From Polytrichum commune (taxonomy: Eukaryota; Streptophyta; Polytrichopsida; Polytrichales; Polytrichaceae), in the NCBI GenBank assembly GCA_950295325.1, contig OX485806.1, forward strand, positions 57,591,169 through 57,655,168: 64,000 nucleotides of DNA. The letters are read 5' to 3'. Numbering within the stretch: the first letter of the stretch is position 1; every line of letters begins with the position of its first letter. Shown here in pieces: positions 28,235-55,175 of this stretch. The notes beneath the pieces are model-generated. The model did no database searches. It was not told the origin of the DNA and worked only from the letters and a program-made list of their open reading frames with translations. Made by a program: the position numbers and the translations under genes.

Positions 28235-31134
28235 TCATGCTTCAGGGGTCTCCCGGGATTCGGAGTTTGGTGGATCTGATGCCCGCATGCGAAGAATGGT
28301 ACCGTTGTTGATGGTACCAAATTGCCCTTTTGTTATGGTGATCTGCTGTTCCTCCAGGGTCTGGGTGACATAGGCCTTGAGGTGGGGTAGCGAAATTTGT
28401 ATTGCATGTGTTGGGTGATGCTCGATCAACCACTGGTGCCTTCTCACCACCTCGAAGCAGATGGTGGTATCTTCTTTCCGCAGGGAGTCTGTGGCTTGTT
28501 GGAAAATCGCTTTGTTATTTGGTTGCAGCTTGGCGATCTCCATCCTCTGGCTATGCGTGTAAGGGCGTAGGGTGGGTAGTGATTGGTTGAATCTGTGATC
28601 TTTGGCTTCAATTGCTTTGTATTGGGCCAATAAGGCCATACTATGGAGTATAAATCTTCTTATGTAAAACGGGGGGGATCCTGTTATAATCTCTATGACG
28701 CCCAAAGGTAGCTTAAAATCACCGGCTGCCCACAGGAATGCTAGGGTGTCTCTTGCTCGGGGGTTAGCTTGGTCTCACAAATCTTTGAACTGTGTTTGCT
28801 TTAATGTGATCCCCCTCTTAAGCAAGGGCAGATTGCTGGTAAGCAGATTAATCAGCCTATAAGCTTGGTAGCATTGCATTACTGATTGGAGAGGGTTTGT
28901 GTGTTCGAGCAATTGGTGGTAGATCTCCGCCCTTTGGTGTGTGCAGGATTGTGGTAGATCAACTCGTACTGATGGGCTCCCCTTTTGGAGTTGCTGTTGT
29001 AGCTACTATTTTTCCTACTTGACCTCCTGTAGCTCATACTATAGATCGTTGAGCAGTTGTTTGGCTGCGAGTGCTGCGAGTGCTTGGCGCTCCGTTCGGT
29101 CTATTGGCCGTCTTGAGCTCTGGCTGGCTCCTGGATTGCTGGTGGGGTTGCAGGCTGGTATTGTTCCTCCTGTGGCTGCTCTTAACCTTTCGTTCTTGGT
29201 TCGTAAATTGGCGAGTTCTTCCTTCTCATGTTGCTGGTTTTGGTGCCACTCTCTTGCATTTCTGTTGTAAGTAGATGCTTCGTACTTGAGCTTTTGAATC
29301 TGGTGGTGCAATTTTTTTGCCTTCTTGTTATAAGTTGTGGCATCGTCTTGGAGTTTTTGAATCCGGTCTTTCAAGGTGACCATTACCTTTTCCTTGTCTT
29401 CTATTTGTTGCAAGTAAACTCTTTCCAGATTCTTGCTGTCCGCTTCGTTTTGAAGTTCCTGGATCCGTTCGTGCAAAGTCGCAATCTTGGCGTCCTTAGC
29501 TTCCAACTGTTGTGTTTGAGTTTCCTCCTTCTTGTGGGCGTTGGCCAAGACATTAGAGTGTTTGTTGGCGAGAGTTTTCACCTCCGTCCTTAACCTCTCG
29601 TTTTCAGCTTGTATTTCTGATATTTGGGTTTGCAATCTGAAGGAGTCGTCAATGTAAATGTCGTTCAATTCATCTGCATTGGCTAGCTTCTCCTATAGCC
29701 TCTCGATTTGGGTACTCTGAGATTTGAACATCTCAGACATGAGTGTGGTGCTGTCATCTGTAAGCCGAGTTCCTTCATGCAATATGGCTTCTCTTTGCAA
29801 CTTGTGGAACTGGAAATAACATGCCGCATCAGTTGGGAGGGAGTCTTGCTCGCAAGGGTCGTGAGTAAGTTTTCGAGCCTCCTGTGGGCCTGGCTGATTT
29901 GTTTGGTTAAATTTGGAATGGCATCTGGAACCTGCCATGTTTCTTCTATTTCAATCACTACTGATTGTGGTACTTTAGTGGACTAAGGTGGTGTTTTCGA
30001 TTCAGATGGCTCTTGTTCAAGGTCTATCACCTTGGTCTGTACAACCCTCACCGTGCTTTGTAGGTTGGGTGGTGGTCGTGCTGACAACCCCTTATGCGGA
30101 TCCTTAGTCGGCATGACCTTGTCCGTGCTATGCAGAGGCGGTGCTGCTCTTGGGCACCTCTTCTTGTGGGGCTTATGGGTACTAGTGGAGTTAACCATAT
30201 GGAACCCTGCTTCTGCCTCGTGTCGGATATTCATCACCCCAGCAACTGTAAGAATGAGAGTAAGGTGAGGTCCAATGGCGGTCCGTTCAACCTTCACTGG
30301 GTTCTGTGAATGCTTTTGGTGAACCTTCAGAATTTCATCCTGGAGCTCTTGATGAAATTCTTCAACCCAATCAATGGTGTTGCCATTTAGTGCTGCTAGG
30401 ATTAATTCTGCAAATGATATGGAAATGTGGTCGTGACCCGTTGTATTGAGACAAAATAAAGAGCTGAGAATTCTGAGAGGTTTCTTGGCACCTGGGTAGG
30501 CGCAATCCGTCACCTTCACTGTCTCTCGTCCATCCGATGTTGTCTTGAGCGATGGAAATAATTCCGTAAGCTCCCATTGCTTGGTTGAGGCTACTTTTCG
30601 GGTTGTGAATTCAAAAATGTCCCGCAATTGAGTTTTCCAATTTGTTGCTAGTAATGGAAATGTCTTGCCTTGCACTGTGGTCGTCATGGTGGATACTTCA
30701 AGGTTTGCAATTGCCTCTCGAATCAAAGCCTCATGTAGCACCTTCCATGTAACCCTGGTTATAAAGCCATTGAAGTTGACTTGTTTGAGAAACTTGGCTT
30801 CCTCCAAGGTGAACTCAGGGTGCTTAAGAACTGCATCCACCACAAAAATGTATCTTGCCGGCTGCTCCTCTCCTTGCTTCCTCTTCATTTTGTCAACAAG
30901 ACCCAACTCCTCAATGGTTTTCACAGCCCTGCACAATATCTCTTGAGAAACATGAAACTTGCACGACCTTGGGTACCACTGGGACTTACTTTTGCTCCAA
31001 CATATTGAGGTGAAAGCTTGCAGACATGTGGTCTGCAAATCCCTCCAAAACATTCCTTGCTCATTCAGTTGCGGCTTAACCTCACATAATGTTGCGCGCT
31101 TCTCCATGAGGAGTTCCTGAAACACCATGGACAC
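28235..31134 (-). pseudogene. Helical/coiled-coil accessory protein of an LTR element, decayed
   Basis: Read right to left: a helical domain (about 31.1-30.2 kb) containing an I-S-x3-A-E-L-I-L-A-A-L-N-G...W block, a proline/lysine-rich linker, a coiled coil at 29.65-29.05 kb with repeated Q-I-Q-x-L and K-x-R-I-Q-x-L-Q heptads, and a C-terminal helical segment (28.97-28.24 kb). In-frame stops near 29038, 28990 and 28780 and frame changes near 29.7-29.95 kb disable it. The I-S...A...G...W block followed by a coiled coil resembles the 4-kb-unit protein (32405-34495), so both may belong to one accessory or Gag-like family. Its 5' part continues at 36125-36358 beyond a nested insertion. Confidence 0.55.
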
Positions 31135-32164
31135 AAGGGGGACCCCGGAGTGACACCCGGGACTTGTGGTGCCGTTGGTGAGAGGGCCCAAGTGATCCTA
31201 GTGTGGGTGAGGGCCCCGGGCGTTGGGAACGCCTCCCACCCACAAAGACTAGGAGGCATGAGGGTAAGGCCATGAGCTATGCGTAGCTCATGGCGTGGTG
31301 ATTCTAGAATGCTCAAGATCACCTCAATCGGAGGTGTGAGCTAGGAGTTATGGCCATTTCAGTGGGGCGCTGTCCCGGGACAGCGCCCTGGTACAGCAGT
31401 GCCTGGGAGTGATTCCCTGGACTGCCAAGGTTCAAACAGGCATAACTTCCTCAAGACTTGCCCGAATGGGGCAAGTGAGGAGTACATCGGCATCTACGTG
31501 AAGCGTGGATTCAAATGGAGTGGTTGGTTGTTATGATCAAACATCATACAAGGAAGTTATGATGGTCTGAAACTGCTGGGGGGGTTCTAGGCCCAGCAGC
31601 TAAAGGAAAATGTCCACTTGGCCCCAACTCTTGGTAGAGAGACAAGAGGTTGGTTGACGGTGGGGTAGGGGCCCCGCGTAAAGTCCTAGAGGCTTATATG
31701 GGTGAGGTGGTGTGGCCTCACCCACCCGAGGCCGAACGGCACGGCCTCCATGGGCATTGGCCCAATGTGAGGCCATAGTTGCTGTGGGAGTCCAAATTCG
31801 ACGGAAATACGGAAATACGGAAATATGGATTCAATTTCCGTATTTTTCCTTGCTCGTATGAGGATAATAGGGCCTCTTAGGATAAATTACTTGTACTAGG
31901 AAATAGGGCATTCTAAATCCGCCTTGTGCGATAAAACGAATAAAAATGAGTATTATGACCGGTCCGTCAAATTGGATTAGCGGACCGTTTAATCATGGTC
32001 CGAACCGCTGGTCCGGACCAAGTAATGGCCGCGCCAAGATTAACCAACGGACCGAAAGTGGCGGTTACAACGGGTTTATAACGGTTGGGGAAACCATCGG
32101 AAAATGGTTGGTAACCGTTTTCCGTTAAACCCTAACGGTAATCGTGAGAGGAAAAGGGGGAGGA

Positions 32165-32172
32165 TATTTAAA
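32165..32172 (+). promoter_or_regulatory. TATA box of the 4-kb unit, copy 1
   Basis: TATTTAAA 240 bp upstream of the conserved ATG. The matching TATTTAAG is at 55168 in copy 2. Confidence 0.55.
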
Positions 32173-32404
32173 GGTCTCTTCCTTCTCCTCCCCACTTTTT
32201 GCAAGGAGAAGATTTGTTGAGTGAAAGAGTGGTGAGACTTTATTTTTCTTTCGAGCCGCCAGCAGTTGGATTGCTGGGACTCCGTACTTTCTAGTCACCC
32301 GCAGTTGGCTTGCCGGGACTCCATAGCGGTTGAGCGGAAGAGAGGGTACCCGGAGAGGAGAGAGTTTCCGTAAATTGAGACGGAAGTTGAGAGAAGAGAG
32401 GAAG

Positions 32405-34495
32405 ATGCCGGAAACACAGGAAGAGGATCAGAGGGAACCCATCCCAATCCCGCTCAAAACCCTAGTCCCTGCAATTCCAAGAGATGATAGGGAGTTGCAG
32501 GAGCTAGCGGAGGATCTCCGGGTTATGGGCTGTGTTGGGTTGCTCGCTAAACCCTGGAACCTCGGAGCGGAAAATACCCTCCGAGAATTCAAGTTCGAGA
32601 GAGGTAATCAGTGGTTAGGAACCAAGAGGAGGGATCCGGGTCATTGGACTCCTGATGTATGGAATAGGGTCTACGGATTCCCAAGGGGAATTGCAGAGGG
32701 GTGGGCCGGCCGGCGCGACGGCTTGTTCGCCGGAAAGATTAGAGGGGACACGGATCCGAAGGACGGCTTCCACCCCGGGAACTGCCGGAACCTTAGGGAG
32801 CGGAGGGTGTTAGAATTCCTCTTGCCCATCCTCAATCCGGACAAGCCGAAACGGATTAGCCTCACCATGGCTAACACCCTGTTTGGTGCCATGTCTGGAG
32901 TCCAGCCGGTGAATTGGGGTCTGATAATCCAGGAGATAGTAGGGCGGTCCCTCCCCCACATAGGCCGGAAACCCTCCTTCCTCTCCCCCTTCATTCTGCA
33001 CCTCTATCAACACTTCGACTGTTTCACGGCCGAGGAGGAGGACCTGCTGACGATAGCAGTGGACGAGGTCACCTACAAGCTCCATCCGGAAGTTGGAGAC
33101 TTCGAGACGGAGACTTCCAGTGACCCCATCATTCCGGAAGCACCTCCCTCATCACCCGGAAGCCCGCCGCCAACCATTTCTAGGCCACTCTCTCCTCCTC
33201 CTCTTCCTCATCATCATCCGGAACCCGAGCCCAGCCGGGAAACCACTTGGCGGAATGTGGACCTTGCCGCTTGGGACTTTCCGGAAAATCCCTTCAAGCG
33301 GGTCCAGGAGGGGATGGAGGATCTCCAAAACCAGTACTACCAGTTGGAGCACATCGTCCGAGGAGCGAACCAGGCCCTGGACGACTGCGGACCCGGAAAT
33401 ATCCTCCGGGAGTTGGCCAAGAGGGCGGACAGGAAGGAGCTCGAGCAGGCCAAGACAGAGAATGCTCACCTCACCGCGCAGGTTGTGGCCATGACTCAGG
33501 AGCTGAGTCAGAAGAGCGAAGAAATCCGAAAGTACCACGCAGAGCAGGCAATGCTCTTCAGCTGAATCCGGGAGCTGGTGGGGCATCCGGCAAAGATCGT
33601 CAACAAGGCGCATCTCTACGACTGGATGATGGAGTCCGGAGAACCTGCTTCCACCAGATAGACCCTTCCCATCCTCGTGAAATACTCACGGACGATGAAG
33701 GATCTCCTGGCGAAAATCCAGAAGGTGGTTCCGCCAAGCGGAACACCCCGGCGGGTATTCTATCTGGGTCCGCCTGGGTCCCCAACCGGAACCCTCTACG
33801 AAGTAGTTGGCGAGGTCGCTCTGGTTCAGAACCCGCCAACGTCTGCAGGACCTAGCCAGCAGGGAGGCGGCTTTCGGCCGGCTAGTTCCGGAAGAGCTCC
33901 GGAAAGGGTTTGTTCTCCCCAGGTGAGGAGAAAGAGTACCGGGTCTATTAGATCCGGACGAGGCCAGTCCCCGGTTCCGCGGACCTCGGATCGGTCCCGG
34001 ACTCCGGATAGGGCTAGGACACCGATCCGGCATCAGACTTCGGATCGAGAGGCAACTCCGAGTAGGGGCAAGGCCCCTATGACCCACGCCTCGCCGTCGT
34101 CTCCTCCGGACTGCCAAATGGTTAGTCCTTTTCCTTCGCCACCCTCCAGGGCGGCCTCCAACAGGGATCCGCGGACTGCCTGGATCTCAGGCGGGCCGAA
34201 ACAGCGTACCGGAAGCGATCCTTCTCCAGTCTGGAGCATCCGGAAGGGGACAGTTTCCGGAACCCCGGGGACCGTCTCTGGAACACCACAACCAGTTTCT
34301 GGAACCCCAGGGACCGGAACACCGCGGACCGAGGGGGCAGCAGATTCGGAGGACAAGATTGCCCCGTCTCCAAACATGAAGAGGATGCTCACGCGGCTGC
34401 AAAAGGCATCGCCGGGAGGGGGCTCATCCGCCGTTAGCGGACTCGACAGTCACTCGAAGGAGGGATCGGCTCAGAAGAAGCACCGCTCTTCTTAG
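32405..34495 (+). pseudogene. 696-codon protein gene of the 4-kb unit, copy 1
   Basis: The start ATG 32405 is chosen because copy 2 has an aligned ATG (55399); the frame is also open upstream. One reading frame runs to 34495 with only two stops, TGA 33563-33565 (copy 2 has CGG) and TAG 33659-33661 (copy 2 has CAG). N-terminal ~220 residues: mixed helical domain with G-R-R-D-G, a D-G-F-H-P-G-N-C-R motif and a leucine-rich F-I-L-H-L-Y-Q-H. Then a proline linker, a coiled coil (about residues 300-385) and a long S/P/T/R-rich basic tail with repeated S-G-T-P. No enzymatic motif. A Gag-like or nucleic-acid-binding role is a guess. The low stop count suggests recent function. Confidence 0.7.
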
Positions 34496-34569
34496 CTTAG
34501 AAAGGCAACTAGATTAGTTAGGCAGAATAGAGGTAGGCAGGGAGGACTTAGGAGTTTTTGAAGAGGAGG

Positions 34570-34782
34570 AATAAAATTCTCCCTTGGATGTGTCAGCGAA
34601 AAATCTGGATCTTGATCTGGGAAATCCGGGAGAACGGGTGTATTTAGGGTTTTCCTTCGAGGCGGCCGCCTGGGCCGCTGCCCTCAGATTAAGGATTTTG
34701 AGCCTCTACTTAAGGCTGAATAAGGAGTTGGGGAAGGGTTCCTTCTCCATTGTTGTATTTCGATTGCTCCTACTCTAATAAA
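34570..34782 (+). terminator. Polyadenylation signals of the 4-kb unit, copy 1
   Basis: AATAAA at 34570-34575 and at 34777-34782 follow the stop. The first is conserved in copy 2 near 57474. Confidence 0.4.
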
Positions 34783-34947
34783 TTACTTGGTTTCTCACTC
34801 CTTGACTTTCCTTGATCGATGTTTGTATGGATGATCCGGAGATCGTTAGCGGAGGAGAGAGAGTATGAGGGATAGGAGTTCCGGATAGGACATGGGAGAG
34901 GAGACCCGGATCTGATCCGGTTATTGCCTTGTAGATCCTCTCTGTGT

Positions 34948-35500
34948 GTAGTGGGAGGGAAACCTCAATAACCCGGATGGTTGAGTAACGTCTAGGTGGG
35001 ATAACCGCTGGGAGGATTGGGTGAGATCCAGAAGGGACCCGAACTCACGCCAATCTGATCTTCTGAAGAGGTCCCACCGCCCTTAGACGGACCAATCCGG
35101 AAGGTGGTACGGATCGCCCAATTAGCTCAGATTGAGTAGAATCCAAGGTAGAGGTAGTCGGATAGATCTGTCGGAAGGAGAAGGGAAGGACCGGATCAGT
35201 AAGGGTTCCGGGTTGGAGGCCACCTCCGGAGTGTAGTGGAAGAGATCCTCATTGTTCCGGGTGTCTGGGTAACGTCCAGGTGAGATAGCCGTGGGGAAGA
35301 TTGAGCAAAGGTCCGGAAAGGATCCGGAATTATGCCAATCTGATCTTCCGAAGAGGTTTCATCGCCGGAGAGCGGGACAATCCAGAAAGTGGAACGGGTC
35401 ACCCACTTAACCCGTCGAGTTAGATCTCCGGTTGGAATCCGGACTCCTCTAGTCACTGTGGTCCTAAGAAATAATCTGGATCTCTCTGCGTGACCTGCCA
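34948..35500 (+). repeat. Internal 285-bp tandem duplication of the 4-kb unit
   Basis: Two imperfect copies beginning GTAGTGG at 34948 and 35233 share TAACGTC(T/C)AGGTG, GCCAATCTGATCTTC and GAAGAGGT. The same pair lies at 57855 and 58139 in copy 2, so it predates the split of the copies. Confidence 0.75.
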
Positions 35501-36124
35501 GGACGGATCTGATCAATCCGGATTGATTGTGAGGGAGTTTTCGGATTCTAATCTTATAAAGGACGTCTTCGCCGGAAGGAACCACCTATTCTAGAGGATA
35601 GACGTAGAGGGGCAAGTTAGCGTTATAATTAGGACCTAGAGGCTCAATCCGGAAAGGCACCCTCCGGAAGAAGACGAAGAGTGTCCCAAAGACCAAAAGT
35701 CCGGAAATTTGGCTAAGGAAGAGGAGATAAGCAGGAGCGGAGGGTTCTAGACCTCCTACACTTCACAGAATCCCTGGACGATACTAGGGTCATCTGGACA
35801 AAACCGGATTAGGCACTTAAAAACGCCAATCCGGATATGTTGGTGTTCGCGTGTCCCCACAGTTGCCTAGTGTGGTTCAGGTTGTTGTAGTGTTGCTCCG
35901 GCAATGCGATGATCAACATAGGATTGGACTTCTATGGATGGAAGTCCACATTGAGGAAATGGGTTACCAATTAAGGGGTGAGTCCCGGAAGCAAAGTAGG
36001 AGGGTTGGTTCCCCTCCTATGAACTAAAAGGTTCGGGGTAGGAGGAGCTAACCATTAGCATGGCGGAATGCGAATGATTAGCGCTCGTAACCTTTGCTAG
36101 AATTGAAAATTGGCAAGATTGTCA

Positions 36125-36358
36125 AGGGGGACTAGCAAGGGTTGCGACACATAAGCTCTCCATCGCAGCCTTCCTGTTAGTTTCTACCGAACAATCTGGT
36201 ACAACTCCTCTGGCAACTGCTACGCACGGTGGTTGTGAGGAGTGGTTTCTCTGCCACAGCTCCCTTTCAGCTGAAATAAAGAGGTTGAGGCTTCTTGTCT
36301 TAGGGTTTGACACGTTCCAACTGGCTTGCTTCCTTGGCCAGATGGTTGGTGGTCCCAT
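36125..36358 (-). pseudogene. 5' piece of the accessory pseudogene
   Basis: About 78 codons, starting MGPPTIWPRKQ and ending LASPP. It points the same way as the 28235-31134 pseudogene and joins it across the nested insertion with a one-base frame change in a C run. Low similarity information; the link is mainly positional. Confidence 0.35.
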
Positions 36359-37566
36359 TCCTCGCTGGACTTCTGATTTGCCCAGGTAATACCCTCAACC
36401 TGATTTTTACTGTGCAAGTTTTTTTTTTCACTTCACCTATTGACTTGGGGTAAGTGGTTCTCTTGCAGGTACAATAAGTCCTCCTTTTGTGGGATTCCCC
36501 ACTTCGGTGGGTTGAATCCCCATTTCTTTGGGGTCCACTTGTTGGACCCCTCCCAACAAAAATCAAAATCGGAAACTAACTCCTTCATTCACTTGTATTT
36601 TGATGTTTATGTTGGTGTGTGTGTTGAATGTTTTTACCCCTGGTAATTTGAATCTCTATTGTAAATTCCCTTTCTTGTGCTATGTGGTTACTCCTAACTC
36701 TTGAGCTCAAACTGGTTAATTATGGTATCATTTCACGTTCAACTTCCTTCACATGATTTACTTATCCACTGTGCTACCAGCTTTGATTTCACCTAAGTTT
36801 TTCCCCATATCTAAATTCTACTAAGTGTTCTAAAATCTAGTTCGTGGTTCTGAAACCTTCCATAAGAAACAGCTCCCAGTTTATGTGCTCAAAGCTTTAT
36901 ATAGCCCTTAACACCCTTTCACTCCATACACTGGACTCCCAAAGTCCCCTCCATATTTCAACCAGAGTCTCCTTCAAACAAGATTTCATCCACGTACTTC
37001 ATCTAGCTCCTATGGTTCGGTCTCTTCAAACAAAGGTCCGAGCTTCCCTTCTACATTCATCCAAGGTAGTGGTTTCATTTAAGATACTTAAAAAAATCTT
37101 CATCCCTCTCAAGTTGAAATTAATTCCTCCGTGGTGTTAACTTCCTAAAAATACGTGCCTTTCTCAATAATGTAATTCATCCATATGTCATAATTTGTTG
37201 GGAATCTCTTTCATCCTTAAAGCAACTCCTACTTAACTTTTGGGGTGATCCTCGGTGATAAGTGATTATTTTGGTTATGTTTCCTCCGTGTAGGCTTAGA
37301 TACTAGTGACTTCTCTCTTAATCCTCTCATCCTTAAATTGCGATGAAAGGGCTCTTACTGGTTTACTATTCAAGTGGTCAGTCCTAGGTGAGCCTTTACC
37401 TAGGCTTTATTTTCTCATAATTTACATTTGTGAGTTGATTCCCCCCCAGTTGACTTCAAGCGAGGTAAGGCAGGGTAAGCATGGGTTGTATTCCTCATAG
37501 GTGTTGTGCTTCCCGTACTTTCTCCTGAACTTGATAGTAGTTCCCATTGGGATAAGGGTTGTATTC
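36359..37566. other. Unassigned AT-rich stretch
   Basis: No gene. It should hold the LTR/primer region to the right of the accessory element and the 3' side of G2. TGTTGGACCCCTCCCAACA at 36540 has LTR-end character, and a minus-strand GGGGGGG tract at 37441-37447 could be the G2 polypurine tract. Neither has a partner to confirm it. Confidence 0.3.
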
Positions 37567-37770
37567 GTATGGTATGTAGGTTGGTTTTTTTTTCATCCCT
37601 TTGGTCATACCTTTGGGGGTTTAAGGTATCTTTCTCTTGTTGTAATTGTATGGTATGTAGGTTGGTTTCTTTTTCATCCCTTTGGTCATACCTTTGGGGG
37701 TTTAAGGTATCTTTCTCTTGTAATTGTATGGTATGTAGGTTGGTTTTTTTTTCCTCCATTTGGGAGTGTG
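37567..37770. repeat. 78-81-bp tandem repeat at the 3' end of G2
   Basis: GTATGGTATGTAGGTTGG recurs at 37567, 37648 and 37726 with near-identical sequence between, about 2.6 units. It lies just beyond the integrase C-terminus of G2. Confidence 0.85.
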
Positions 37771-38083
37771 GTAATTGGGGATTTGGTGGTAATATTCTTT
37801 GAATGGTTTTGAATGGTCTCTACTTCCAAAATATGACATGCTAAAATTTGTAAGGCATAGGCTTGAGTAGTTTCTGGCTCTTGGTAGGGTTTTAGTTTGT
37901 TCATATTGACTCGTCCCAAATTTTCTTCTTGTAGGGTGGTAACATCCACCGATCCATTGTCATATACTTGTTCAATGAGGTAGGGTCCTGCCCATCGTAT
38001 TTTGAACTTGCCCGGCCCAGGTATTTTATGGCGTAAGTGCCATAGGATTCGTTGGCCGGGGTAAAACGTGCCTTAGGTGTCAA
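37686..38083 (-). pseudogene. Integrase C-terminal domain of G2
   Basis: Frame-shifted continuation after the stop at 38106. The pieces read G-P-Y-L-I-E-Q then D-V-T-T-L-Q-E-E-N-L-G-R-V-N-x-N-K-L-K-P-Y, a typical GPY-type integrase tail. No chromodomain. Confidence 0.6.
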
Positions 38084-38105
38084 GGTTTGCTCACACTCTT
38101 CACTA

Positions 38106-39167
38106 CTAGGAGTTTGTTTCCTCCATAGCTTGCACGGTTACTTCCTTCAAGGTGTCATGTTTCTTGGTTTCCTTTCGTGGGGGCTTGGCTATCCCATGAT
38201 TACAATGCTTACATGGTGTCTTCATCCTTGGCTTGTCATGCCTGTCTTTGCGTAACATTTGCATGTGTTTCATATTTTCTTCGGCTTCATGTCGGGTTAA
38301 ATCCATAACCCTAAGTTGCTCCATTCTCTTCTCTAGAATGGGATGAATTTCTTGACTTCGTCTTTGGTAAACATCGGGGTGAAGGTAAGCCATAGGTAAC
38401 AAGGCTTCCGTTCCAAAAACTAATGAGAATGGAGTATGTTTCGTTGTGACCTTGTAGGCTGTCCTATAGGCCCAAAGTGCTGCATGTAATTTGGTATCCC
38501 AATTTGTTCGATTAGCGTTCACCATTTTGGTCAAGGCTATCTTTATCACCTTGTTGGTAATCTCAGCTTGCCCGTTAGCCTGCGGGTAGTATGTTGTCGA
38601 TTTTCGATGAAGAATCATGAATTCTTGAGTGAATACTTTGATGGTGTCGTTGATAAAATGGCCCCCTTGGTCGCTTACAAACTCCAAAGGGCATCCAAAT
38701 TTTGTAATTATTTCTTCAAAAAGGAATTTGGTTGTGGATTTAGCCGTGTTATCCTCTAAGGCTCTGGCTTCCACCCATTTGGTGGTGTAGTCCGTAGCCG
38801 TGATAATGTACCGATTTTTGGTACCTTTAGCTGGTGGGTTGACTGGTCCGATGAAATCCAAACCCCATTTCTGAAATACCTCCGTGGGCATTGTGGGATG
38901 TAGGGGTTGGAGGTTGGAAGAGATTTTGGGGCCAACTCGTTGACAAATGTCACATTGAACGCAATAAAGATAAACATTCTTCTTCATCGTGGGCCACCAA
39001 TACAAGGCAGTTAAAACCTTGTGTAAGGTGATATTCGCCAAAAAGTGCCCTCCAGCTATTCCTTCATGAGCCTCCGTGATAATGGCTGTAGTTATCGGTC
39101 CAGCTACGCATGTCCTCCGTATACCATCGGGCCCTTCTTTTATCAGAGTCCCATTGTGATTTAGCAT
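38106..39167 (-). pseudogene. Integrase of G2
   Basis: 353 codons beginning inside the last zinc module (H-E-G-I-A-G-G-H ... Y-W-W-P-T ... C-D-I-C), then the catalytic core: W-G-L-D-F-I-G-P, T-D-Y-T-T-K-W, S-D-Q-G-G-H-F and the glutamate in N-G-Q-A-E. All three catalytic acids are present. It is in the same frame as the upstream zinc-module ORFs, separated by a TAA at 39264 and a TGA near 39201. Confidence 0.85.
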
Positions 39168-42135
39168 GTATGGACAACTTCGTATGGCGATTTGTTGTCA
39201 CTGCGTGGTTGAAGCTTCTGTGGTCAGCCTCCCGTATGTTAAGTAATCGATGAAAGGTGTTCTTTAGTCCGGTTCTTCTTTGTCCTTGATCGTGATAGTT
39301 TTGCAGTCAACAACATGTTTCGGGAATTTATTTGGCCAACACACTCTACATTTCTTACATAGGTGGTCAATGTCCGGAGGAATTGTGGGCCACCAATAAG
39401 GCCCTTTGGTGACTTGTAAAATCATTTCATCCATTGAAAGATGGGGGTACCGTTGATTGTGGATGGTTGTCAACCATTCGATTCCCTTTTCTTGAGAGAT
39501 GCACAGTCTTGTTTGCCCATTTGCAAAACTTTGCTTTAACTTTCCTTTCTTTAGAAAGTAATGAGGTAATTCCGTCCGTAAGGTACCCAATTTTTCATGG
39601 AAGGCGAAGTCGCTTAGTTCCATTGGGTTTTTGAGGTATTGAATGATTGGTTCTCTCCAATCATGTGCATTCTGATTCTGAAGGAAGAGGGCCCCATAGT
39701 TCTCAACTTTGAGGCTTGATGTTGTGGTGTTTCGACACGGTGCGCATTTATGAATTAAATGCGTCACATTTGAAGACATGGTTGGCCACCAATACGGGCC
39801 TTTGTGTACTGGCGTGAGTACCTCTTTTCTCGTAAAGTGTGGTACTTGGTATTCATGTATCCGTTTTATCCAATCCAACGCTTCCTCTTTTGTCACGCAC
39901 ATTTTTACTTCCTCATTAGGTAACCGATATTTCAAACCATCATTGGTTATGAAATAAGTATCGGTGTCGGGGCTGACTAATCCCAACTCTTCATGTGTGC
40001 CAATGTGGTTTAACTCCTCAAAGTTCTTCAATCGTTGTGTGATCGGTTGTCTCCAATCTGGCTCAGGTGTTGGTTTTGGCGAAGATGAGTTTGGACTTTC
40101 TTTGTGGCGTTTCTCCAGTGTCTTCGTCTTACTGCAGGTTGTGCAGTATTGTAAATGATTGCATACGTCATTTTCCCATGTCGGCCACCAGTATGTTCCT
40201 GTGGCCACGGCCTTCCATGTTTCTATGGCGGCCAAGTGGGGTCCGCTTTCCCCATGGGTCTCGAATAGGTACATGGAAACTTGAGTCTCAGGTATACAGA
40301 TTTGGTTATTCTTTCCTCCTTTGCATATCCGTTGTAACGTGCTGTTGGTGAACACAAAATACTTATGGCTTTGTGTTACCGCCCTTTTTACCTTTGGTGG
40401 TAAGGTTTGGTCGAAGATTTTTTTGCATGTTAGGTACTCCATGTAAGGCCGTCTCCAATCTACAACAATCCCTCTTGGTAGGTCTTTCCGGTCCAGAGGC
40501 GATGGTGTTTGCTGGTCCTTTGAAAATTCCGCTTGGTTGCTACATACCGTACATTTCCGACCGCATAAGTTGTTAATGTCAGCTCCACATGTAGGCCACC
40601 AGTATGATCCAAACATGATCAGGTGCCACATTATCTCGATGCTAAGATACTGCCCGGATTCAGTAACATGTAGTTCTTGCAGGTATTTGTTGATCTCACG
40701 TCCCCCAATACATATCTTAATATCTCCATTTGCCAAGATTCGTTTTAGCTCCCCTTCTTCAATGAAATATTCTCGGCTTTGCCGAGTTATTTTCTTGTAT
40801 TGATTTTTCGAGATGCGGGGCCCTTTCAAGTACCCATATGTGAGGTATTCTATAAGTAATCTCCTCCAATCCTTGTTGTCATGGGCTTGTACGATGACGG
40901 ACCCGCAAATTATGTTATGGAGCGGGCCTCGAAATCTTCTTCGACAAGACGGGCAGTCGTACATAATGTAGATTTGTATGTCGCACAGCCCCATCGTGGG
41001 CCACCACCGATTCCCTTGCGAGCATCAAAGCCAAGTTTGCCGATCGTCCAAGTGTCTTTGCTGGTGTACGTGCACTTTCCCTATCCAATGCTTTATTTGG
41101 TAATCAGCAATGCAGATTCTAACCATTCCATTTTTCTCCAGTTTTCGAAGTTTTCTTTTCTCCAAAGTGAAAATTTTGCTCTTTCGTATGGTTTCATGCT
41201 GCCCTCTTTGAGTCTCCATGTCCATTTTGAATCTTCCATGCGCCAGATATTCGACTAGAGGTGTTCTCCAATCGTTAAAGGTCTCTTTGTATGGTATAAT
41301 GTCCGCCCCGCTACCCGGTTCCGAAGAGCTTGCTTCAGTGGGTAACTCTTCTCCCTGTTCTTCACACTCGGTGCATAGTGTGATGAGTAGTGAGACATCT
41401 TCCGCAATAGTTGGCCACCAATACGGCCTTTGTAGAACTAATTTCCTGGTGGCATTTATTGAAAGATGCTGATTTTCTCGTATATGGAGGGTCTTGATGT
41501 AACTCCTCACATATCTTCTAGGCATACATTTCTTCGTAATGCCGTTAGGAAACATGCGATGTAACTCTCATTCAATGAGTTTGAAAAATTTGCTTCGGTA
41601 CACTACCAATTTTTTCTCTTCTTTGGGTAGGGAACTCACCCAGGGGGTTCCGTGTGTTAGACATGTTAGATTTTGGACATATGGTGTTGTCCAATCTGAT
41701 TCTGCTTTTTCCTTTTATGTCTTCTTGCGCTTCCAAAGGTTGGAAAGGGAATGGATCGTCGTCGTCCTCGGGATCTTGTGGGGTAATGTTCCCGGTTTTG
41801 TTTCTTTGGTCAGTAACCTTACATACTAGACATTCTTGACAGTATTCCAGTACGTCTCTTCGTCGGGTGGGCCACCAATATGGTGTGCGTAGTATGTAAT
41901 GTCATGTTGAAGTTAGATTGTAGTGTATCCCATCTTGCTCATGGGCTTCGCTTATGACTTCTTCAATGATGTCCCCGGCTATACACTCATGTATCTTCCC
42001 GGAGATATTGACTTGCTTGAGCTTTTCGTCGTCTAGGACGAATGGCTCACTCAGTTGCTTGATCTTGTTTTGTTCTTGTGGGGTGGCCAGAGCTCACAAC
42101 AACCTCCCATGGGTAAGATACTCAATGAAATGCGC
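39168..42135 (-). pseudogene. Tandem array of integrase-type H2C2 zinc modules of G2
   Basis: Eight Y-W-W-P-T (one N-R-W-W-P-T) motifs read on the minus strand at plus positions about 41871, 41413, 41001, 40594, 40183, 39783, 39388 and 38991, spaced 458, 412, 407, 411, 400, 395 and 397 bp; the last is the normal integrase finger. Each module has D-W-R-x-P near its start, a Y-F/L-x-x-G-x-L block, H-x5-H, Y-W-W-P-T and C-x2-C. Seven of eight keep all four zinc ligands; the 40594 module has Q for the second H. Normal gypsy integrases have one such module. The open stretch 39264-40994 alone is 576 codons. The role is unknown; extra nucleic-acid or protein contacts are conceivable. Confidence 0.85.
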
Positions 42136-42966
42136 TCACCAATCTTCAAATGGTTGTACGTGTACCATAAAGAGGTTGGCGTCCAGAAACTGATCTTGTA
42201 CTCCCGAGGGGTCTTCTCCGCTTTCTATCCTTGATAGGTGGTCAGCCATTACATGGCTTCTACCGGGTTTGTAAATGACTTCGAGGTCGTATTCTTGGAG
42301 TAAAAGCATCCATCTTGCAATGCGCCCGGACACCACTGGTCGATTGACCAAGTATATCAGGGCTTGATGGTCCACGTAGAAAATGAAATGGTTTGCTGGT
42401 AGATAATGCTCAAATTTGCCCACTGAGTAGATCATCGCTAGGGCTTCACGCTCCGTCGTACTGTAGTTCTTCTCCGTATTGTTTAAGAGTCGACTTGCGT
42501 AATGAATTGGAGAATCTCTATCTCCATGTATGTTTTGAGCCAAAACGGCTCCAATCGCGATGTTTGACGCATTGCAGTGTACGTGGAACTCCATGGTCCA
42601 ATTGGGAGTTACCAAAATGGGGGTGGTCGTTAACATTTTCTTCACTTCTTCGAAAGCCTCCTGACACGATTTGGTCCAAAGATATTTTTCTCCTTTCTTG
42701 AGTAATAAATACAAAGGCCGAGTGATCTCAGCATACATCCATATGAATTTTCGATGGTATGTAGCTTGTCCCAGGAAACTCCGAATTCCTCGTATGGCGG
42801 TTGGTGGAGGTAATCCCTTTATGACTTCCACCTTCTTCGGATCCACCAACAATCCTTCCTTGCATACCACGTGCCCTAAGAGTCTCCCTGAATTGACGCA
42901 GAAGAAACATTTCTTTGGGTTCAGGCTTACTCCATTTTCGCGGCACTTCATGAGACATTTTTCCAA
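42136..42966 (-). pseudogene. RT thumb/connection and RNase H of G2
   Basis: Continues RT in another frame after a frameshift at 42967-42998. It includes L-L-G-H-V-V, the F-L-G-Q-A-T-Y-H-R-K-F-I block, RNase H with H-C-N-A-S-N-I (usually D-A-S) and T-E-R-E-A-L-A-M-I-Y, and ends H-V-M-A-D-H-L-S-R. The next module reads D-W-TGA where the other modules have D-W-R. Confidence 0.8.
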
Positions 42967-42998
42967 ATGCTCAATGTGGTCTTCCTTGGTTCCGTAAA

Positions 42999-43877
42999 CT
43001 ATAAATCATCTAAAAACACCTTCATGAATTTGTCGAGGTAGTCGGCAAATATCTTCATCATGCCTTTTTGGAAGGTGGCTGGTGCGCACATCAATCCAAA
43101 GGGCATTACCCTGTACGCGAATGCTCCGTACTCGGTGATGAAAGAAGTCTTCAGCTGGTCTTCTAAGGTGATCATGATTTGGTTGTAGCCACTGTACCCG
43201 TCCATCAACGTGTACATCTCATGTCCTGCAACCGCTTCCAAGATGCATTCTGTAAAAGGTAAAAAGAAAGGATCTACCTTAGTGACGGCGTTTAATTTCC
43301 TGTAGTCGACGCACACGCATAGTTTCCCATTCTTCTTGGGTACAATCACGATCGGGGATAACCATTCTGTTTTATCCATAGGTTATATGAATCCCGCTTC
43401 CAAGTACTTGTCGATTTCTTCCTTCACCTTGGCTGTGTAATTAAAATTCATCCTATAACGCATTTGTCGTACCGGCTTGGCTTCCGGCTGCAGCTCAATC
43501 TTGTGCTCGCACACATGAGGGGGTATGCCCTTCATGTCTTTATATGTGAAAGCAAACACATCCTTGAATTTTAGGAGTAGCTCTTTCACCTTTGCTTCGT
43601 AATCTCCCAAATCTTTCGCGATTTTGACTAACTTAGGCTCCTCTGGAGTTCCTAAGTTTAAATTCTTCACCAAGTCTTCATCTTCAACGGTCCATCCTGC
43701 TATTTTCTTCTCTTTGACGGCATCTGAGGTAGGGGTGCGATCTACCGCGATATCCCCTTTTTTTACTTTGTAGAACTGGCTTGGATACACCGGTTTCTCC
43801 TCCATGGCTTCTTGCTCCTTCTTAGTTGCTTTTCGTTTCCAAGTTTTCTCGGGTTTACTTTTTTGTGCTCTAATCAT
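42999..43877 (-). pseudogene. Reverse transcriptase of G2
   Basis: Contains V-C-E-H-K-I-E-L, the fingers motif S-P-I-V-I-V-P-K-K-N-G-K, M-P-F-G-L-M-C-A-P-A-T-F-Q and the catalytic F-L-D-D. A stop at 43380-43382 splits it, but the frame is unchanged on both sides. Confidence 0.82.
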
Positions 43878-43913: not shown

Positions 43914-44531
43914 TCATAGCTTCTTCAAGCTTTTCAAATCAAAATCTCCCATGGGTAACAATTCTGGAAATGCTTCATAGACTACCGCTTCTTCTTCATC
44001 GGTCAGTCCCATTTCCCAATCGTAGTCTTCCCAATGTAAAGGTCTCTTATCAGGTGGTAGTGCAGGGGTTCTCTGAAAACTCAATTCGACCTTGCTTCCT
44101 CCTTGAGTCAAGGTTAATTTATTGAGGGGCCAATCATGTTGTGCTTGGGCCTCCTTTAACCACGGTCTTCCCAATAATAGGAAATAGCTGTCTTCGGTGC
44201 TCACCATGTCTATAACGGTGAGTGTTGTCCGGATCACGATTCCGCCGACATCAAGGCGTACATCCCGGATGATTCTTTTGGGCGTGACCCTCTTCTGGTC
44301 AGCCATCTTAATGGTAAATGGTGCGGGCTCTATCTTCTTGAGTCCTAATTTCTTCTTCAATGTGTCTGTGATGATGTTCACTCCTGATCCACCATCGATC
44401 AACGCGTTCGGTATTCGTTTATTCTTCACAATTTCTGATATCATGGGCATTTCCTCATCGAATGCCTTTGTTGTAACTTGATAGGTTTGAGCCGGTTCTT
44501 CTGTCGTTTCATCATTCGCTAATGCCGCCAT
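43914..44531 (-). pseudogene. Aspartic protease region of G2
   Basis: Holds the active-site loop A-L-I-D-G-G-S-G-V-N-I, with D-G-G in place of D-T/S-G, and L-L-G-R-P-W-L. In the polyprotein it lies between the acidic region and RT. Confidence 0.7.
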
Positions 44532-44534
44532 TAT

Positions 44535-45239: not shown

Positions 45240-45935
45240 TCAGGCTTCTGGTATACTCATACCTGTCATGGTTGATAGGTCCTCTGGGGCCTCCTCGATA
45301 GGGGTATCCATTTTCCCTCCGGTAATCTTGGCTTTTGTAGGGGTAATAACCTTCCTTCCTACAATCATCTATGTAGCTATCATTGGGCCTAAAGTAGGGC
45401 CGTTCATCTCTGCGATATTCATTTCCTCAGTAGGGGCCTCCCGCCTCCCGCTGGTAATCGCCTTCCCTATATGGGGATCTCTCGTCTCTTCTATAATCCG
45501 TTCTTGGTTCGAACCGAACTCTCCTTTCATTCATCTCTCGCCTAGAAGTTATCGCTCCTGGCCTCCGATTGGTTTGGGGCTGCACTTGGTTCACCCCATA
45601 TCTCCTATCCCGGGGTCTCCGAGATTCATGCCTTTCATAAACACACTCACTGGTGTTGTGTGTTAGGCTGTTGCAGTTGGTGCACTGCTTCATTTGACAC
45701 TCCTGCACGTAGTGTCCTTCATTTCGGCATCTCCGGCAAATGATGCCTGTTCGAAATTTCCTGCTCCCTAGAGCTAGTCCTTCAATTTCCTACCTGAGGG
45801 TCTTTATGTCCTCTTTGGTAGAGTCATTTCTCTTACCCTTTGATTTCTTTTTCTTTTTCTTCCGCTCTTCTTCTGAATCATCGCTTGAGTCGTCGCTGTC
45901 ACTTTCATCGAGGAATCTTCCTTTCCTCATTTGAC
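45240..45935 (-). pseudogene. Nucleocapsid region of G2
   Basis: Acidic S-D-S-D-D-S then a lysine run, followed by two knuckles, C-R-R-C-R-N-E-G-H-Y-V-Q-E-C and C-T-N-C-N-S-L-T-H-N-T-S-E-C, and a long R/Y-rich tail with repeated Y-R-R-D-E-R. Stops near 45427 and 45790 interrupt it. Confidence 0.7.
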
Positions 45936-45972: not shown

Positions 45973-46839
45973 TCAGTCATCAGTTGGCATGAGATCAATA
46001 TGTTTGGCGTACTCCTTTTTGAGGCCGTTAAGAAACCATACCTTCTTGAAATGATCACTGGGTTGTGGATTGATTTTTGAGGATTCCACCATAATCCTTT
46101 TGTAAAATTCTTCGACTATTTCATCCTTTTTTTGTTTGAGGGATCCTAGACTCTCAATCACTTCTCCCTCCAATTTCTTGGATCTAAATCTCATTAGAAA
46201 GGTAGCTCCCAAGGCTGGCCAATCCGGAAAATGGTGTGGGCCAAATTGAGAATACCATTCTAGTGACCACTTCTTCAAGGTAACTGGAAATAATTGCAAC
46301 TTAATCGCATCGGTGTCTTCCTGGTTGGCAAGACAAACATTGTTAAATTCCTGCATATAAGTATCGGGATCGGTCTTACCCTTATAGGTTGGTAAGGGAA
46401 CCTTTGTTCTCCGCGGTTGAGTGGCCATGTTGGCCGGGTTAGGTGGGTTGTTTCCCACACTAGGTACGTTGTTGTTGTTGGCTGGTGGTGGGCTGACTCC
46501 GGGGTTAATTCCAAGGTTTTGGAGTTGCCTGAGTCTTTCTTCGAACTTCCTCCTTAGTTCGTCAAACTCCTCTTGACTGATAGGTTTCTTTACTCCTTGG
46601 TCGATGTCGTTCTGTGTGCTCCCTCTGGAGAAATCGGAATCCTCGTAGCTAAATTGTGTCTGAAAATTTCTTTTTAACTCTTCCCAAGTCCTGTGGTTGA
46701 GAATGTCTTCTTTGTTTGTGTTTCCTTGATGAGCTTTACCTTTATCCTGCGCCCCACTTACCGGGGTATGCGTACCGGTGCTTCTCCCTGTACCTTTTGT
46801 TCTTAGAACATAGGTCCCAAGAGGGGTACCTATTATCAA
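45973..46839 (-). pseudogene. Gag capsid of G2
   Basis: 288 codons. An E/R/K-rich helix with E-L-R-R-K-F-E-E-R-L is followed by an N/P-rich linker and the retrotransposon Gag capsid core: V-P-L-P-T-Y-K-G-K-T-D-P-D-T-Y, W-Y-S-Q-F and F-Y-K-R-I. The start is uncertain because the element is cut about 30 bp upstream. Confidence 0.75.
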
Positions 46840-46870
46840 ATCATCTTTGTCATCGCTTTCCTCTTGAGCT

Positions 46871-48116
46871 AAGTTGTCCTCATTCGTACTACGACATGTC
46901 TCTCCCTACAACAACCTCAATGAGGTACTTCATGTCTCCGATGACATCCACGGTTCTTGGAGTACATTATGGCAAGAGGCCAATGAGAAATTCGACGCCA
47001 TGCTCCAAAATGACCTTGACCTTGAACACCTTTCTGGCAAGATGTTCTACGTGTGGGAGGGTAACCATTGTTTGACAGCTTGGTGGAGGCACATAAATAA
47101 GCATCACTCGCTGGATAAAGATTGGCATATCTCAGTTGACTGTATTGTCGTGGATCCAAGAAATTCCACCACAGTCTTCTTGAATGCCATGAATGACATC
47201 AATTGGTAAGATGAGCTTTATTTTCCTTGTTTCTTATCCGTGTTACTATGATTCTAATTACTTTGTTTTTTAGGTCCACGGAGCATGATCATGTCAAGGA
47301 TAACCTCCCTGCCAAATTGCTTCGGATTCGAATATTTGGGAAAATGAAGCTTGAGGATTTCAAGGACCTCATTTCTGTTGACGACTACAAGATGTGCAAG
47401 TCCAAGATGGAGAAGAATCCTACTTGGTATCCCCTCACATTGGATGTCTTCGTCAAGTTCTTGTACAAGGTAATTCTGCTCCTCGATCCTATTTGTTTCC
47501 TTCGTCATGTTTTATGCATGTATCCTTACACACAATTATGTTTATTGTAGAGAGAGATATCCAATTCAGCGGACACTGCTGCACAGTTATACCACGAGGC
47601 CACTCCCGAGGCTCTTAGATCTGCTCCTGGGATTTGGGATGTCATGACCAAAGCACAGGAAAAATTGATCAAAAGTATTCGATCTCGGAACTTTGAAAAG
47701 TTCATCTCCGTAACACACAAGGACAACGGCGATGACTTCTTCCAAGAGGTACTCCCTTGACATCTTCAATATTTATTTGCTTCAACCTTCATGTTTTTGA
47801 AGCCGTTTTTTTTGTATATTTTCTCACATAACACTATTTTATTTATCAGATTGACTGTCATTTCTCCAACTTCCTTGTCTCGGATATGACTATTGAAAAA
47901 CTCCAAAAGGTGGCTACAACACATGTGGATGCTTCCTTTAAGGCTAGGTGGCTTCGGTGGTGGAATTCCCCCACCGAGGTCAAAACCAAAAACAAGTTCC
48001 CCTCTTCTCTTCTTCTTCGCGAGAAAATCCTTGATGACTGGCGCAACAAAACTTCTTATTGGGCACATGTACTCCATGGCCCTCCTTTCATATATTTGTT
48101 CTCTTCAACCATTTAG
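46871..48116 (+). pseudogene. Spliced gene fragment with a possible ParB-like domain
   Basis: Four exons joined in frame by canonical GT-AG introns at 47206-47273, 47470-47550 and 47749-47849. Exon 1 has G-K-M-F-Y-V-W-E-G-N-H-C-L-T-A-W, like the G-x-H-R-L-x-A loop of ParB/sulfiredoxin-fold proteins with R changed to C, followed by a beta-rich D-W-H-I-S-V-D-C-I-V-V-D and, in exon 2, a charged block. Exon 4 is helical with W-L-R-W-W and ends at TAG 48116. The 5' end is cut at the G2 junction and the 3' end runs into a palindromic array, so it is partial. It may be the N-terminal part of the SWIM transposase family at 20-24 kb, since related palindromic arrays flank both; no overlap proves this. 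Confidence 0.55.
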
Positions 48117-48756
48117 TTCAACTAGATGGTTGGTAGGCTCAGAACCGAGAAGGACCAGATTTTCCTCTTGAAGGTTGACAGCTTGTTTGTATGAATAAGT
48201 TCAACTAGTTGGGTGTCAGGTTCAACTCGTTTGTTTTGGGGCTAGGATTTCACCCTCTCGGAACCGAGAGGGTTTCAGTGTAGCAAGGAAGGAGACGATT
48301 GTGCACATTAAGGTTGAAAGCTTGTTTGTGCACATAGGTTGAACTAGTTTGTTTGGTGGCTAGAATTTCACCCTATCGGAACCGAAAGGGTCTTAGGTTA
48401 GAAATATAGGAATTGATTTTGCACATTAAATTTGAATGTTTGTTTGTCTGGATAGATTCAACTAGGTGGTTCATAGGTTCAACTCGTTTGTTTTTGGGCT
48501 AGAATTACACCCTCTCGCAACCGAGAGGGTCTTAGTGTAGGAATATGGGACCACATTATCCAGTTGAAGGTTGTTAGCTTGTGTGTGTGGATAGGTTCAA
48601 CTAGTTTGTTTGTGGGCTAGAATTTCACCCTCTCGGAACCGAGAGGGTCTTAGGATAGAAATAAAGGACCCCATTCTGCACATTAAGGTTGTTAGCTTGT
48701 AGGTGTGTATAGGTTCAACTAGTTATTTGTTAGGTTCAACTGGTTTGTTTTGGAAC
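48117..48756 (+). repeat. Palindromic tandem array 2
   Basis: CCCTCTCGGAACCGAGAGGG or variants at about 48252, 48370, 48508 and 48627 (steps 118, 138, 119 bp), each within GGGCTAGAATTTCACCC and followed by TCTTAG. The stem is nine bp with an AA centre. The intervening sequence repeats GGTTCAACTAGTTTGTTTG. The core differs from the 17.8-20.0 kb satellite only at the centre (AA for AT). Confidence 0.88.
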
Positions 48757-49318
48757 GGTAGAGGGTATGGGTCCGAATTGAGTTTTCGGTAGTCAATACA
48801 TATCCTCAATTTGCCATTTTTCTTTGGTACCACCACAATTGGTGATAACCAACTAGCCTCGTCCACTTGCTGAATTAGGCCGGCTGCAATCAACTTGTCC
48901 AACTCCTTTTTCACAACCTTGGCATAGTTTCGGTTCATCCTATACCTGGTTTGATGAGCTGGTGGAATAATTGGGTCCAAGTCAATTTTGTGTGTTGCAA
49001 ATTGTGCCGGTACTTGCTTCAAATCCTTGAAGGACCACGCAAATACTCCCTTAAACTTCTTCAATAACTTGAGTAATTCTTTATCAAGCTTCTCAGGCAA
49101 CTTTGCATTGACCTTCACATGCTTTGGTTCCATCTCTGTGCCCAAATTCATCTTTTTAATCTGCTCCTGCTCCGGCAACGTCCAACCAGCCACCTTCATG
49201 TCTTTCACTTTCTCCCGTGCTAGTTGTTCATCCACCAGTACATCTCTCTCTATGAACTAGTAGAAGTTGTCTGGATAGTCCTTTGGCTTATCCACCTCGG
49301 GCGGGACGTCCAAGGGTT
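48757..49318 (-). pseudogene. Protease-RT linker and N-terminal RT of G3
   Basis: Contains K-V-A-G-W-T, Y-R-M-N-R-N-Y-A, S-P-I-V-V-V-P-K-K-N-G-K and I-D-Y-R-K-L-N, then a small deletion before D-P-Y-P-L-P-F, after which the sequence becomes array 2. The palm domain with the catalytic aspartates is absent. A TAG near 49259 precedes the first ATG. Confidence 0.75.
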
Positions 49319-49326
49319 GCCCCACA
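49319..49326. other. Target duplication, left copy
   Basis: GCCCCACA, repeated at 51417-51424 (or nine bases, GCCCCACAC, if the end is set one base later). Confidence 0.8.
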
Positions 49327-51416: not shown

Positions 51417-51424
51417 GCCCCACA
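51417..51424. other. Target duplication, right copy
   Basis: GCCCCACA, identical to 49319-49326. Confidence 0.8.
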
Positions 51425-52650: not shown

Positions 52651-52674
52651 TAAAACCTAGAATCACGTGCGTTC

Positions 52675-53340: not shown

Positions 53341-53348
53341 GTGCATTC

Positions 53349-54750: not shown

Positions 54751-55167
54751 GGACCTATGGGAGCCCAATATTCTACGGAAATATGGAAATACGGAAATAC
54801 GGATCCATTTTCCGTATTTTACCCTGCTCGTATGAGGACAATAGGGTCTCTTAGGGTAAATTAATTGTACTAGGAAATAGGGCGTTCTAAATCCGCCTCG
54901 CACGATAAAAATGATAAAAAGGGGTACTATTACCGGTCCGGCAAATTGGACGAGGACCGTTTGATTATGGTCCAGACCGCTGGTCCGAACCAAGTAACGG
55001 TTACGTCACGTTTACCCAACGGTCCAGAAGTGGAGAGCCGACTGGTAACGACGGTTACAACGGACTTGTGGCGGTTGGGGGAAACCGTTGGTAAACCGTC
55101 GGAAGATGGTTGGCAACCGTTTTCCGTTAAAACGAACGGTAACAGGGGAAGGAAGAGGGAGGAAGGA

Positions 55168-55175
55168 TATTTAAG
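55168..55175 (+). promoter_or_regulatory. TATA box of the 4-kb unit, copy 2
   Basis: TATTTAAG, aligned with 32165-32172 of copy 1. Confidence 0.5.

What the first reader, a model, noticed from the sequence alone, without database searches (positions are those of the whole stretch)
38991..42135. Eight tandem integrase zinc-binding modules in one gypsy polyprotein
Between RNase H and the integrase core of G2 the pre-integrase module (D-W-R-x-P linker plus H-x5-H / Y-W-W-P-T / C-x2-C finger) is repeated eight times at a regular 395-458-bp spacing. Known Ty3/gypsy integrases carry one. Sequences have diverged strongly between modules, yet seven of eight keep all four zinc ligands, and modules 2-8 share one frame with integrase. 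That suggests the array was maintained by selection rather than being a recent slip. I know of no described element with this architecture. Possible roles are multivalent integrase assembly, target-site reading or RNA binding.
Basis: partly seen in the sequence, partly recalled or inferred. Interest (0 to 1): 0.88.

Follow-up and report, generated by a model that had tools for sequence, protein, structure and literature searches.

The report
Integrase with many repeated zinc modules
In this plant-type genome a family of jumping genes carries 5, 8 or 11 repeated copies of the small zinc-holding front domain of its DNA-inserting enzyme instead of the usual one, and the repeats are preserved by natural selection, so they very probably do something useful for the element.

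Summary
On the minus strand at 38907-42168 lie eight H2C2 zinc modules between RNase H and the integrase core. Each is a whole ~110-residue unit like the NED-NTD of foamy-virus and Ty3 integrase. The window copy is decayed (stops, one frame break), the family is not. Database proteins hold arrays in the same module order (61 of 61 modules). The window's own genome holds at least 41 places with module 5, several in open frames of 2,100-3,716 aa. Median dN/dS per module (M2-M8) is 0.09-0.24, with 0 of 990 pairs at 1 or above, and 904 of 922 ligand codons are kept although third bases vary. Eight of 41 copies have a second M1-M2-M3 block, making 11 modules. A sister lineage, read in three copies, has five colinear modules. 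This suggests growth from 1 to 5, 8 and 11. Module 8 is the most canonical. Best reading: a multivalent integrase N-terminus for complex assembly or tethering. Architecture and selection are shown, the mechanism is inferred. Seven paper searches found no description.

The parts
45973..46905 (-). gag ORF of the element (Retrotrans_gag)
   Evidence: PF03732 E 2e-7
45427..45789 (-). zinc-knuckle part of gag
   Evidence: PF13696/PF00098 weak, below cut-off
43914..44534 (-). aspartic protease region
   Evidence: PF13975/PF13650 E ~1e-4, below cut-off; database protein P0027 (protease region, RT, RNase H and the start of M1 in one frame) is 85-87% identical to 44534-41971
42136..43382 (-). reverse transcriptase and RNase H (two ORFs, overlapping frame break)
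   Evidence: PF00078, PF17917, PF17919
41788..42168 (-). module M1 (decayed in this copy: three internal stops; different frame from M2-M8)
41328..41720 (-). module M2 (one internal stop)
40917..41300 (-). module M3 (one internal stop)
40506..40898 (-). module M4 (second His of the zinc site is Tyr in this copy)
40098..40463 (-). module M5
   Evidence: own-genome query
39696..40079 (-). module M6
39300..39683 (-). module M7 (folded; like foamy-virus integrase NED-NTD)
38907..39296 (-). module M8, the most canonical integrase N-terminal unit, next to the core (two internal stops in this copy)
38109..38906 (-). integrase catalytic core with D..D-x35-E, plus start of the tail
   Evidence: PF00665 E 1e-10; core translation printed, spacing counted from it
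37824..38342 (-). integrase C-terminal part (...KFKIRWAGPYL...), partly in another frame in this copy
   Evidence: tblastn of a C-terminal stretch of P0005, 68% over 173 columns; ORF 37686-38072
29563..31088 (-). probable further 3' part of the same element, cut off by the 4-kb LTR-like insertion at 31783-35861; overlaps a long ORF, and L044 has a long ORF there too
   Evidence: blastn of L044 against the window, 65-69% identity

Best explanation
This is a lineage of Ty3/gypsy LTR retrotransposons whose integrase N-terminal unit (NED plus H2C2 zinc-binding NTD, about 110 residues, joined by polar linkers with medians of 23-41 residues) has been amplified in tandem inside the gag-pol reading frame, probably in steps 1 to 5 to 8 to 11, and has been kept by purifying selection. 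Shown: architecture, recurrence, colinear inheritance, purifying selection on M2-M8, retention of the zinc ligands, one most canonical module (M8) next to the core, divergence of the others, nearly identical copies on different chromosome-size contigs. Inferred mechanism: M8 does the ordinary NTD job for the catalytic core, while M1-M7 form a flexible chain of specialised NTD-like units that adds contacts for integrase-integrase, integrase-cDNA or integrase-target assembly. It would supply in one chain what retroviral intasomes obtain from extra integrase subunits (recalled analogy). Not shown: whether the chain stays attached to the core after protease processing, and what each module binds.
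Against: No biochemical or structural evidence on the chain as a whole: the 586-aa multi-module model failed (pLDDT 31.9). M6 has lost zinc ligands in one subclade (for example P0002, P0003, P0035), and lineage B's module Y lacks C-x2-C in L041-L043 though P0032 keeps it, so not every zinc site is needed. M8 itself departs from the single-module units at 5 of the 19 columns, and the nine units include five close relatives. Database proteins P0011 and P0016 keep M5-M7 (P0016 M7 only) but lack M8 and the core, so array modules can be carried without the catalytic domain. Polyprotein cleavage sites are unknown. The B-A pairing of X with M4 (82/69) and Y with M5 (93/70, flagged as long branches meeting) is only moderately supported.
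Confidence: 0.5

Rival explanations
1. The chain is chiefly a nucleic-acid binder: the zinc modules hold the element's RNA or cDNA, or scan target DNA, like a string of fingers.
For: M2, M3, M5 and M8 carry net positive charge (medians +5, +5, +5, +3); zinc sites retained. That retroviral NED-NTD units touch viral DNA is recalled, not from a call.
Against: M1, M6 and M7 are acidic (medians -3.5, -6, -3). The modules have diverged from one another rather than staying alike (20-39% within the window).
Confidence: 0.2
2. The polyprotein is cut between modules, and the freed small zinc proteins act separately (for example on Gag assembly or against host defence).
For: Linkers separate all modules (medians 23-41 residues, range 10-42 in lineage A), rich in P/S/T/G/N/Q or, after M1, acidic; module-specific conserved sequences; core-less derivatives keep array modules.
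Against: No cleavage site was recognised (none was searched for by a tool); in the open copies the array lies in one frame with the integrase.
Confidence: 0.15
3. Ratchet without benefit: modules multiplied by unequal exchange, and each became hard to lose because the polyprotein must fold; no added function.
For: Module-wise changes occur: M1-M3 block doubled in 8 of 41 copies, M6 seems missing in P0016 (read), zinc site lost in some M6 and Y modules. Interior modules have higher dN/dS than M8.
Against: dN/dS of 0.14-0.24 in M2-M7 and 98% retention of ligand codons are strong for mere tolerance; eight modules cost about 3.3 kb per copy, and the array seems to have grown in several steps.
Confidence: 0.13
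4. Local degenerate duplication or assembly error in one copy.
For: This copy is decayed; such cases were discarded as likely mispredictions in a survey (PMC6317226).
Against: At least 41 places in the genome carry M5 and 42 of 48 database proteins carry two or more module hits, with the same order and dN/dS far below 1.
Confidence: 0.01

Closest known systems
Prototype foamy virus integrase NED-NTD (PDB 4e7k, 3l2q)
   Different: One unit per integrase against 5, 8 or 11 here.
Ty3 integrase of Saccharomyces cerevisiae (PDB 7q5b)
   Different: As far as recalled one N-terminal unit; only one stretch matched.
Single-module gypsy element at window 53-6058 and eight PF17921 stretches of the same genome (L001-L008)
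   Same: RNase H, one zinc unit and core in the usual order (for 53-6058; L001-L008 only read as ~3.2-kb stretches); share G, Q and the ligands with M8.
   Different: One module hit in 9 of 9 tested with the same profile.
OTA (Athila/Tat) elements and Tat elements with additional RNase H (PMC6317226: passages and section 6 read; PMC10508981: passages read)
   Same: Non-chromovirus plant gypsy elements that gained extra domains; one Tat structure has two sequential additional RNase H domains (passages).
   Different: The gain here is in the integrase N-terminus; no additional RNase H found in the ORFs scanned. Lineage membership not tested.
ZBTB11 (PMC5384227; title and start of abstract seen)
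   Same: Reuse of an integrase-like HHCC zinc finger outside its usual place.
   Different: A host regulator, with no tandem array known to me (recall).
Retroviral intasomes with flanking integrase subunits (recalled, no call)
   Same: Extra NTDs used for assembly, the proposed working analogy.
   Different: There the extra NTDs come from extra subunits, not from one chain.

Membership tests
Ty3/gypsy LTR retrotransposon | Domain order gag-PR-RT-RNase H-integrase | tested here: met
   (protease matches below Pfam's cut-off); open frames up to 3,716 aa in other copies
Ty3/gypsy LTR retrotransposon | Integrase core with DD35E | tested here: met
   PF00665; D-x35-E counted in the core printed
Ty3/gypsy LTR retrotransposon | Paired LTRs and target-site duplication of this element | tested here: inconclusive
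   No LTR pair found for it between 46900-49999 and 35861-38110; its 3' side is broken by another insertion
Integrase zinc-binding domain (H2C2, PF17921) | HHCC ligands and fold | tested here: met
   (fold predicted for M7 only)
Usual gypsy integrase | One N-terminal zinc unit | tested here: not met
   5, 8 or 11 units
Chromovirus | Chromodomain at integrase C-terminus | tested here: inconclusive
   No Pfam match in 37686-38072; this copy is broken there
Tat lineage (additional RNase H) | A second, additional RNase H | tested here: inconclusive
   None in the pol ORFs scanned or in 29986-31197; some Tat may have lost it (passages of PMC10508981)
Athila/Tat (OTA) superclade | RT phylogeny | not tested
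   No named reference sequences were at hand

The most novel reading that the evidence does not exclude
A recently mobile group of plant-type retrotransposons has evolved a modular, multivalent integrase in which position-specific NTD-like units, added stepwise (1, 5, 8, 11), build or target the intasome from within a single chain: an intasome scaffold encoded as beads on a string, with non-autonomous derivatives that keep array modules without a catalytic core.
Probability: 0.35. Interest if true: 0.9.

Novelty: new variant of a known kind. Interest (0 to 1): 0.82.

Why it matters
The integrase N-terminal unit is, as far as I know, present once in described Ty3/gypsy elements and retroviruses. 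A selected series with 5, 8 and 11 diverged units, beside single-unit elements in the same genome, makes it testable how many and which NTD contacts an integration complex needs and how integrases gain new contacts. It also warns that filters which discard elements with repeated domains as mispredictions (PMC6317226, section read) can hide real architectures.

Tried and rejected
Local degenerate duplication and misassembly: rejected.

The 4-kb repeats at 31783-35861 and 54756-58801 looked like the LTR pair of this element. Each is flanked by its own 5-bp repeat (GCAAC; GGTCC), so they are separate solo-LTR-like insertions, one of them probably inside the 3' part of this element.

Viral contigs, bacterial and archaeal genome contigs and plasmids: no relatives found. 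A fold of the 586-aa multi-module stretch gave pLDDT 31.9 and was not used. In the alignment for the M7 fold some of the 21 rows hardly overlap M7. The first comparison of the core with lineage B used a frame shifted by one and is void; it was redone. A failed script was redone; part of the printed alignment was cut from the output. A TRF run inside one search printed nothing. A search of the own genome with P0032 did not complete. dN/dS used only stop-free, nearly full modules (20-25 of 30 loci per module) and pairs with dS 0.1-1.2; closer and saturated pairs were dropped. M1 was not included in dN/dS because its start lies outside the loci. The host species was not identified. Whether P0011, P0016, P0044, P0046 and P0047 come from genomic DNA or transcripts is unknown, and their junctions were not tested further; the likeness of the P0044/46/47 tails to other tails is weak (E 0.006-0.02 in the better pairings, 0.05-0.2 in others).

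Full report
What is there. The finding lies on the minus strand, in a decayed Ty3/gypsy element whose gag, protease, reverse transcriptase, RNase H and integrase core were all recognised (protease and zinc-knuckle matches are below Pfam's cut-off). Between RNase H and the core are eight units, M1 to M8 (38907-42168). Translation, Pfam PF17921 (seven stretches) and a profile of the whole unit (all eight) agree. The unit is about 110 residues: D-W-R-x-P, a small three-strand region with a conserved Cys, then H-x5/6-H, Y-W-W-P-T and C-x2-C, followed by a linker (medians 23-41 residues, range 10-42 in lineage A). Seven of eight units in the window keep all four ligands. The window copy has stops in M1, M2, M3 and M8 and M1 in another frame, so it is dead.

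Is it one damaged copy? No. A protein search with the 586-aa stretch gave 17 proteins. All 61 of their modules match the module of the same ordinal position in the window, in the same order, at about 49-86% identity, while different modules within the window are 20-39% identical. Two more searches brought the total to 48 proteins, of which 42 have two or more module hits, partial ones counted. In a tree of 106 modules, each of the eight ordinal groups (91 rows) is one side of a single branch; 15 rows of divergent or single-module proteins were in no group and not counted. Database proteins that overlap each other cover protease-RT-RH-start of M1 (P0027), RH-M1-M2-M3 (P0017), part of M1 to part of M7 (P0004), part of M3 to core (P0001) and part of M5 to tail (P0005), each open.

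In the own genome. The window lies in a 407.8-Mb assembly. M5 as query found 41 places at 52% identity or more over at least 104 residues, the window included, many in open frames: for example 3,716, 3,652, 3,306, 3,264 and 2,889 aa (only 150 candidates are scored, so counts are lower bounds). The 30 best, the window copy among them, were read as loci L009-L038. All keep the order of the modules they have; four lack some in the stretch held: L012 (most of M8), L015 (M7, M8), L027 (M1-M3), L036 (M1, M2, part of M3). Many have stops or frame breaks; 7 of 30 have all modules stop-free in one frame, M1 being cut by the locus edge. Very similar copies exist, such as L028 and L029 on two chromosome-size contigs, 99.8% identical over 3,354 bp, which points to recent movement (inference). 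As a control, the single-module gypsy element at window 53-6058 and eight other PF17921 stretches of about 3.2 kb (L001-L008) show one module hit each with the same profile (9 of 9; in L001-L008 the hit covers the finger half only).

Selection. Nei-Gojobori medians over pairs with dS 0.1-1.2 are: M2 0.14 (109 pairs), M3 0.16 (89), M4 0.18 (165), M5 0.21 (270), M6 0.24 (206), M7 0.18 (77), M8 0.09 (74); none of the 990 pairs reaches 1. Pairs are not independent, and only stop-free, nearly full modules were used (20-25 of 30 loci). M1 was not tested this way. At the zinc ligands of M1-M8, 904 of 922 codons still encode His or Cys (H1 227/231, H2 225/232, C1 228/230, C2 224/229), while 200 codons are in the rarer synonymous state.

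Growth of the array. Eight of the 41 copies carry two M2 modules about 1.24-1.26 kb apart. Two of them were read: RNase H is followed by M1-M2-M3 and then by M1 again, without a stop in the 3.5- and 3.6-kb stretches, which with the other modules makes 11. A second lineage in the same genome has five modules between RNase H and core in the three copies read (L041-L043); its second module is found at 23 places nearly full length at 88-100% identity, whose other modules I did not all read. In the tree its modules fall with A's M1, M4, M5, M6+M7 and M8, in that order. M6+M7 with Z has 100/96 support, M1 92/78, X with M4 82/69, and Y with M5 93/70 with a long-branch warning. The simplest reading is an ancestor with five, gain of M2-M3 and a split of M6/M7 giving eight, and a block doubling giving 11. 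Other copies have only the second type of M1-M3 block, judged by M2 (L011, L013, L024; L014 by identity), so recombination between subfamilies is an alternative route to 11.

Results against a simple story. M6 lost its zinc site in one subclade, and lineage B's module Y lacks C-x2-C in L041-L043, though P0032 keeps it. Two database proteins, 87% identical over 417 residues, keep M5-M7 or M7 but lack M8 and the core and run on into the C-terminal tail; P0016 also seems to lack M6, as its start resembles the M5-M6 linker (read). The origin of these contigs, DNA or RNA, is unknown. The multi-module fold failed.

Literature. Seven answered searches found no description of tandem integrase zinc units (listings seen); the library lacks most subscription journals. 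In PMC6317226 (passages; [quoted passage not shown] PMC10508981 (passages) shows that plant Tat elements can gain and double an additional RNase H.

Verdict. Observation confirmed, interpretation supported in its main claim, and the case is broader than reported. Architecture and selection I hold at about 0.97; multivalent assembly or tethering as the mechanism at about 0.4-0.5.

Noticed in passing
window 53-6058 (-): A 2,002-aa open gypsy polyprotein with gag, protease, RT, RNase H, core and one zinc module.
   Followed up: partly
window 11788-15906 (+): A 1,373-aa open copia polyprotein.
   Followed up: no
window 10193-11730: 12.8 copies of a 120-bp tandem repeat, about 95% alike, just before the copia ORF.
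   Followed up: no
window 31783-35861 and 54756-58801: Two 4-kb TGTGGG..CCCA(C/T)A units, 82.6% identical, each with its own 5-bp flanking repeat: solo-LTR-like. The first probably sits in the 3' part of the array element.
   Followed up: partly
window 18120-19353 and 60860-62094: A 1.2-kb direct repeat, 95% identical, 43 kb apart.
   Followed up: no
window 48723-54632 (-): Pieces of another gypsy element: RT start 48651-49277 (46% to P0027) and protease region 51781-52335 (38% to P0027), a gag-like ORF 53868-54632 judged by eye; the RT stops at a 118-bp tandem repeat.
   Followed up: no
window 37558-37797 and L044 506-662: 81-bp tandem repeat just beyond the integrase tail; L044 matches these units at the corresponding place.
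   Followed up: no
window 29986-31197 (-); L044 from 2475; L045 from 2736: Long ORFs downstream of the integrase, without a Pfam match in the window copy; the L044 and L045 ORFs look different from each other.
   Followed up: partly
P0011, P0016; P0044, P0046, P0047: Array derivatives without the integrase core in lineage A and perhaps in lineage B.
   Followed up: partly
L041, L042, L043 third module: Module Y keeps Y-W-W-P-T but lost C-x2-C and the usual second His, in stop-free module stretches.
   Followed up: no
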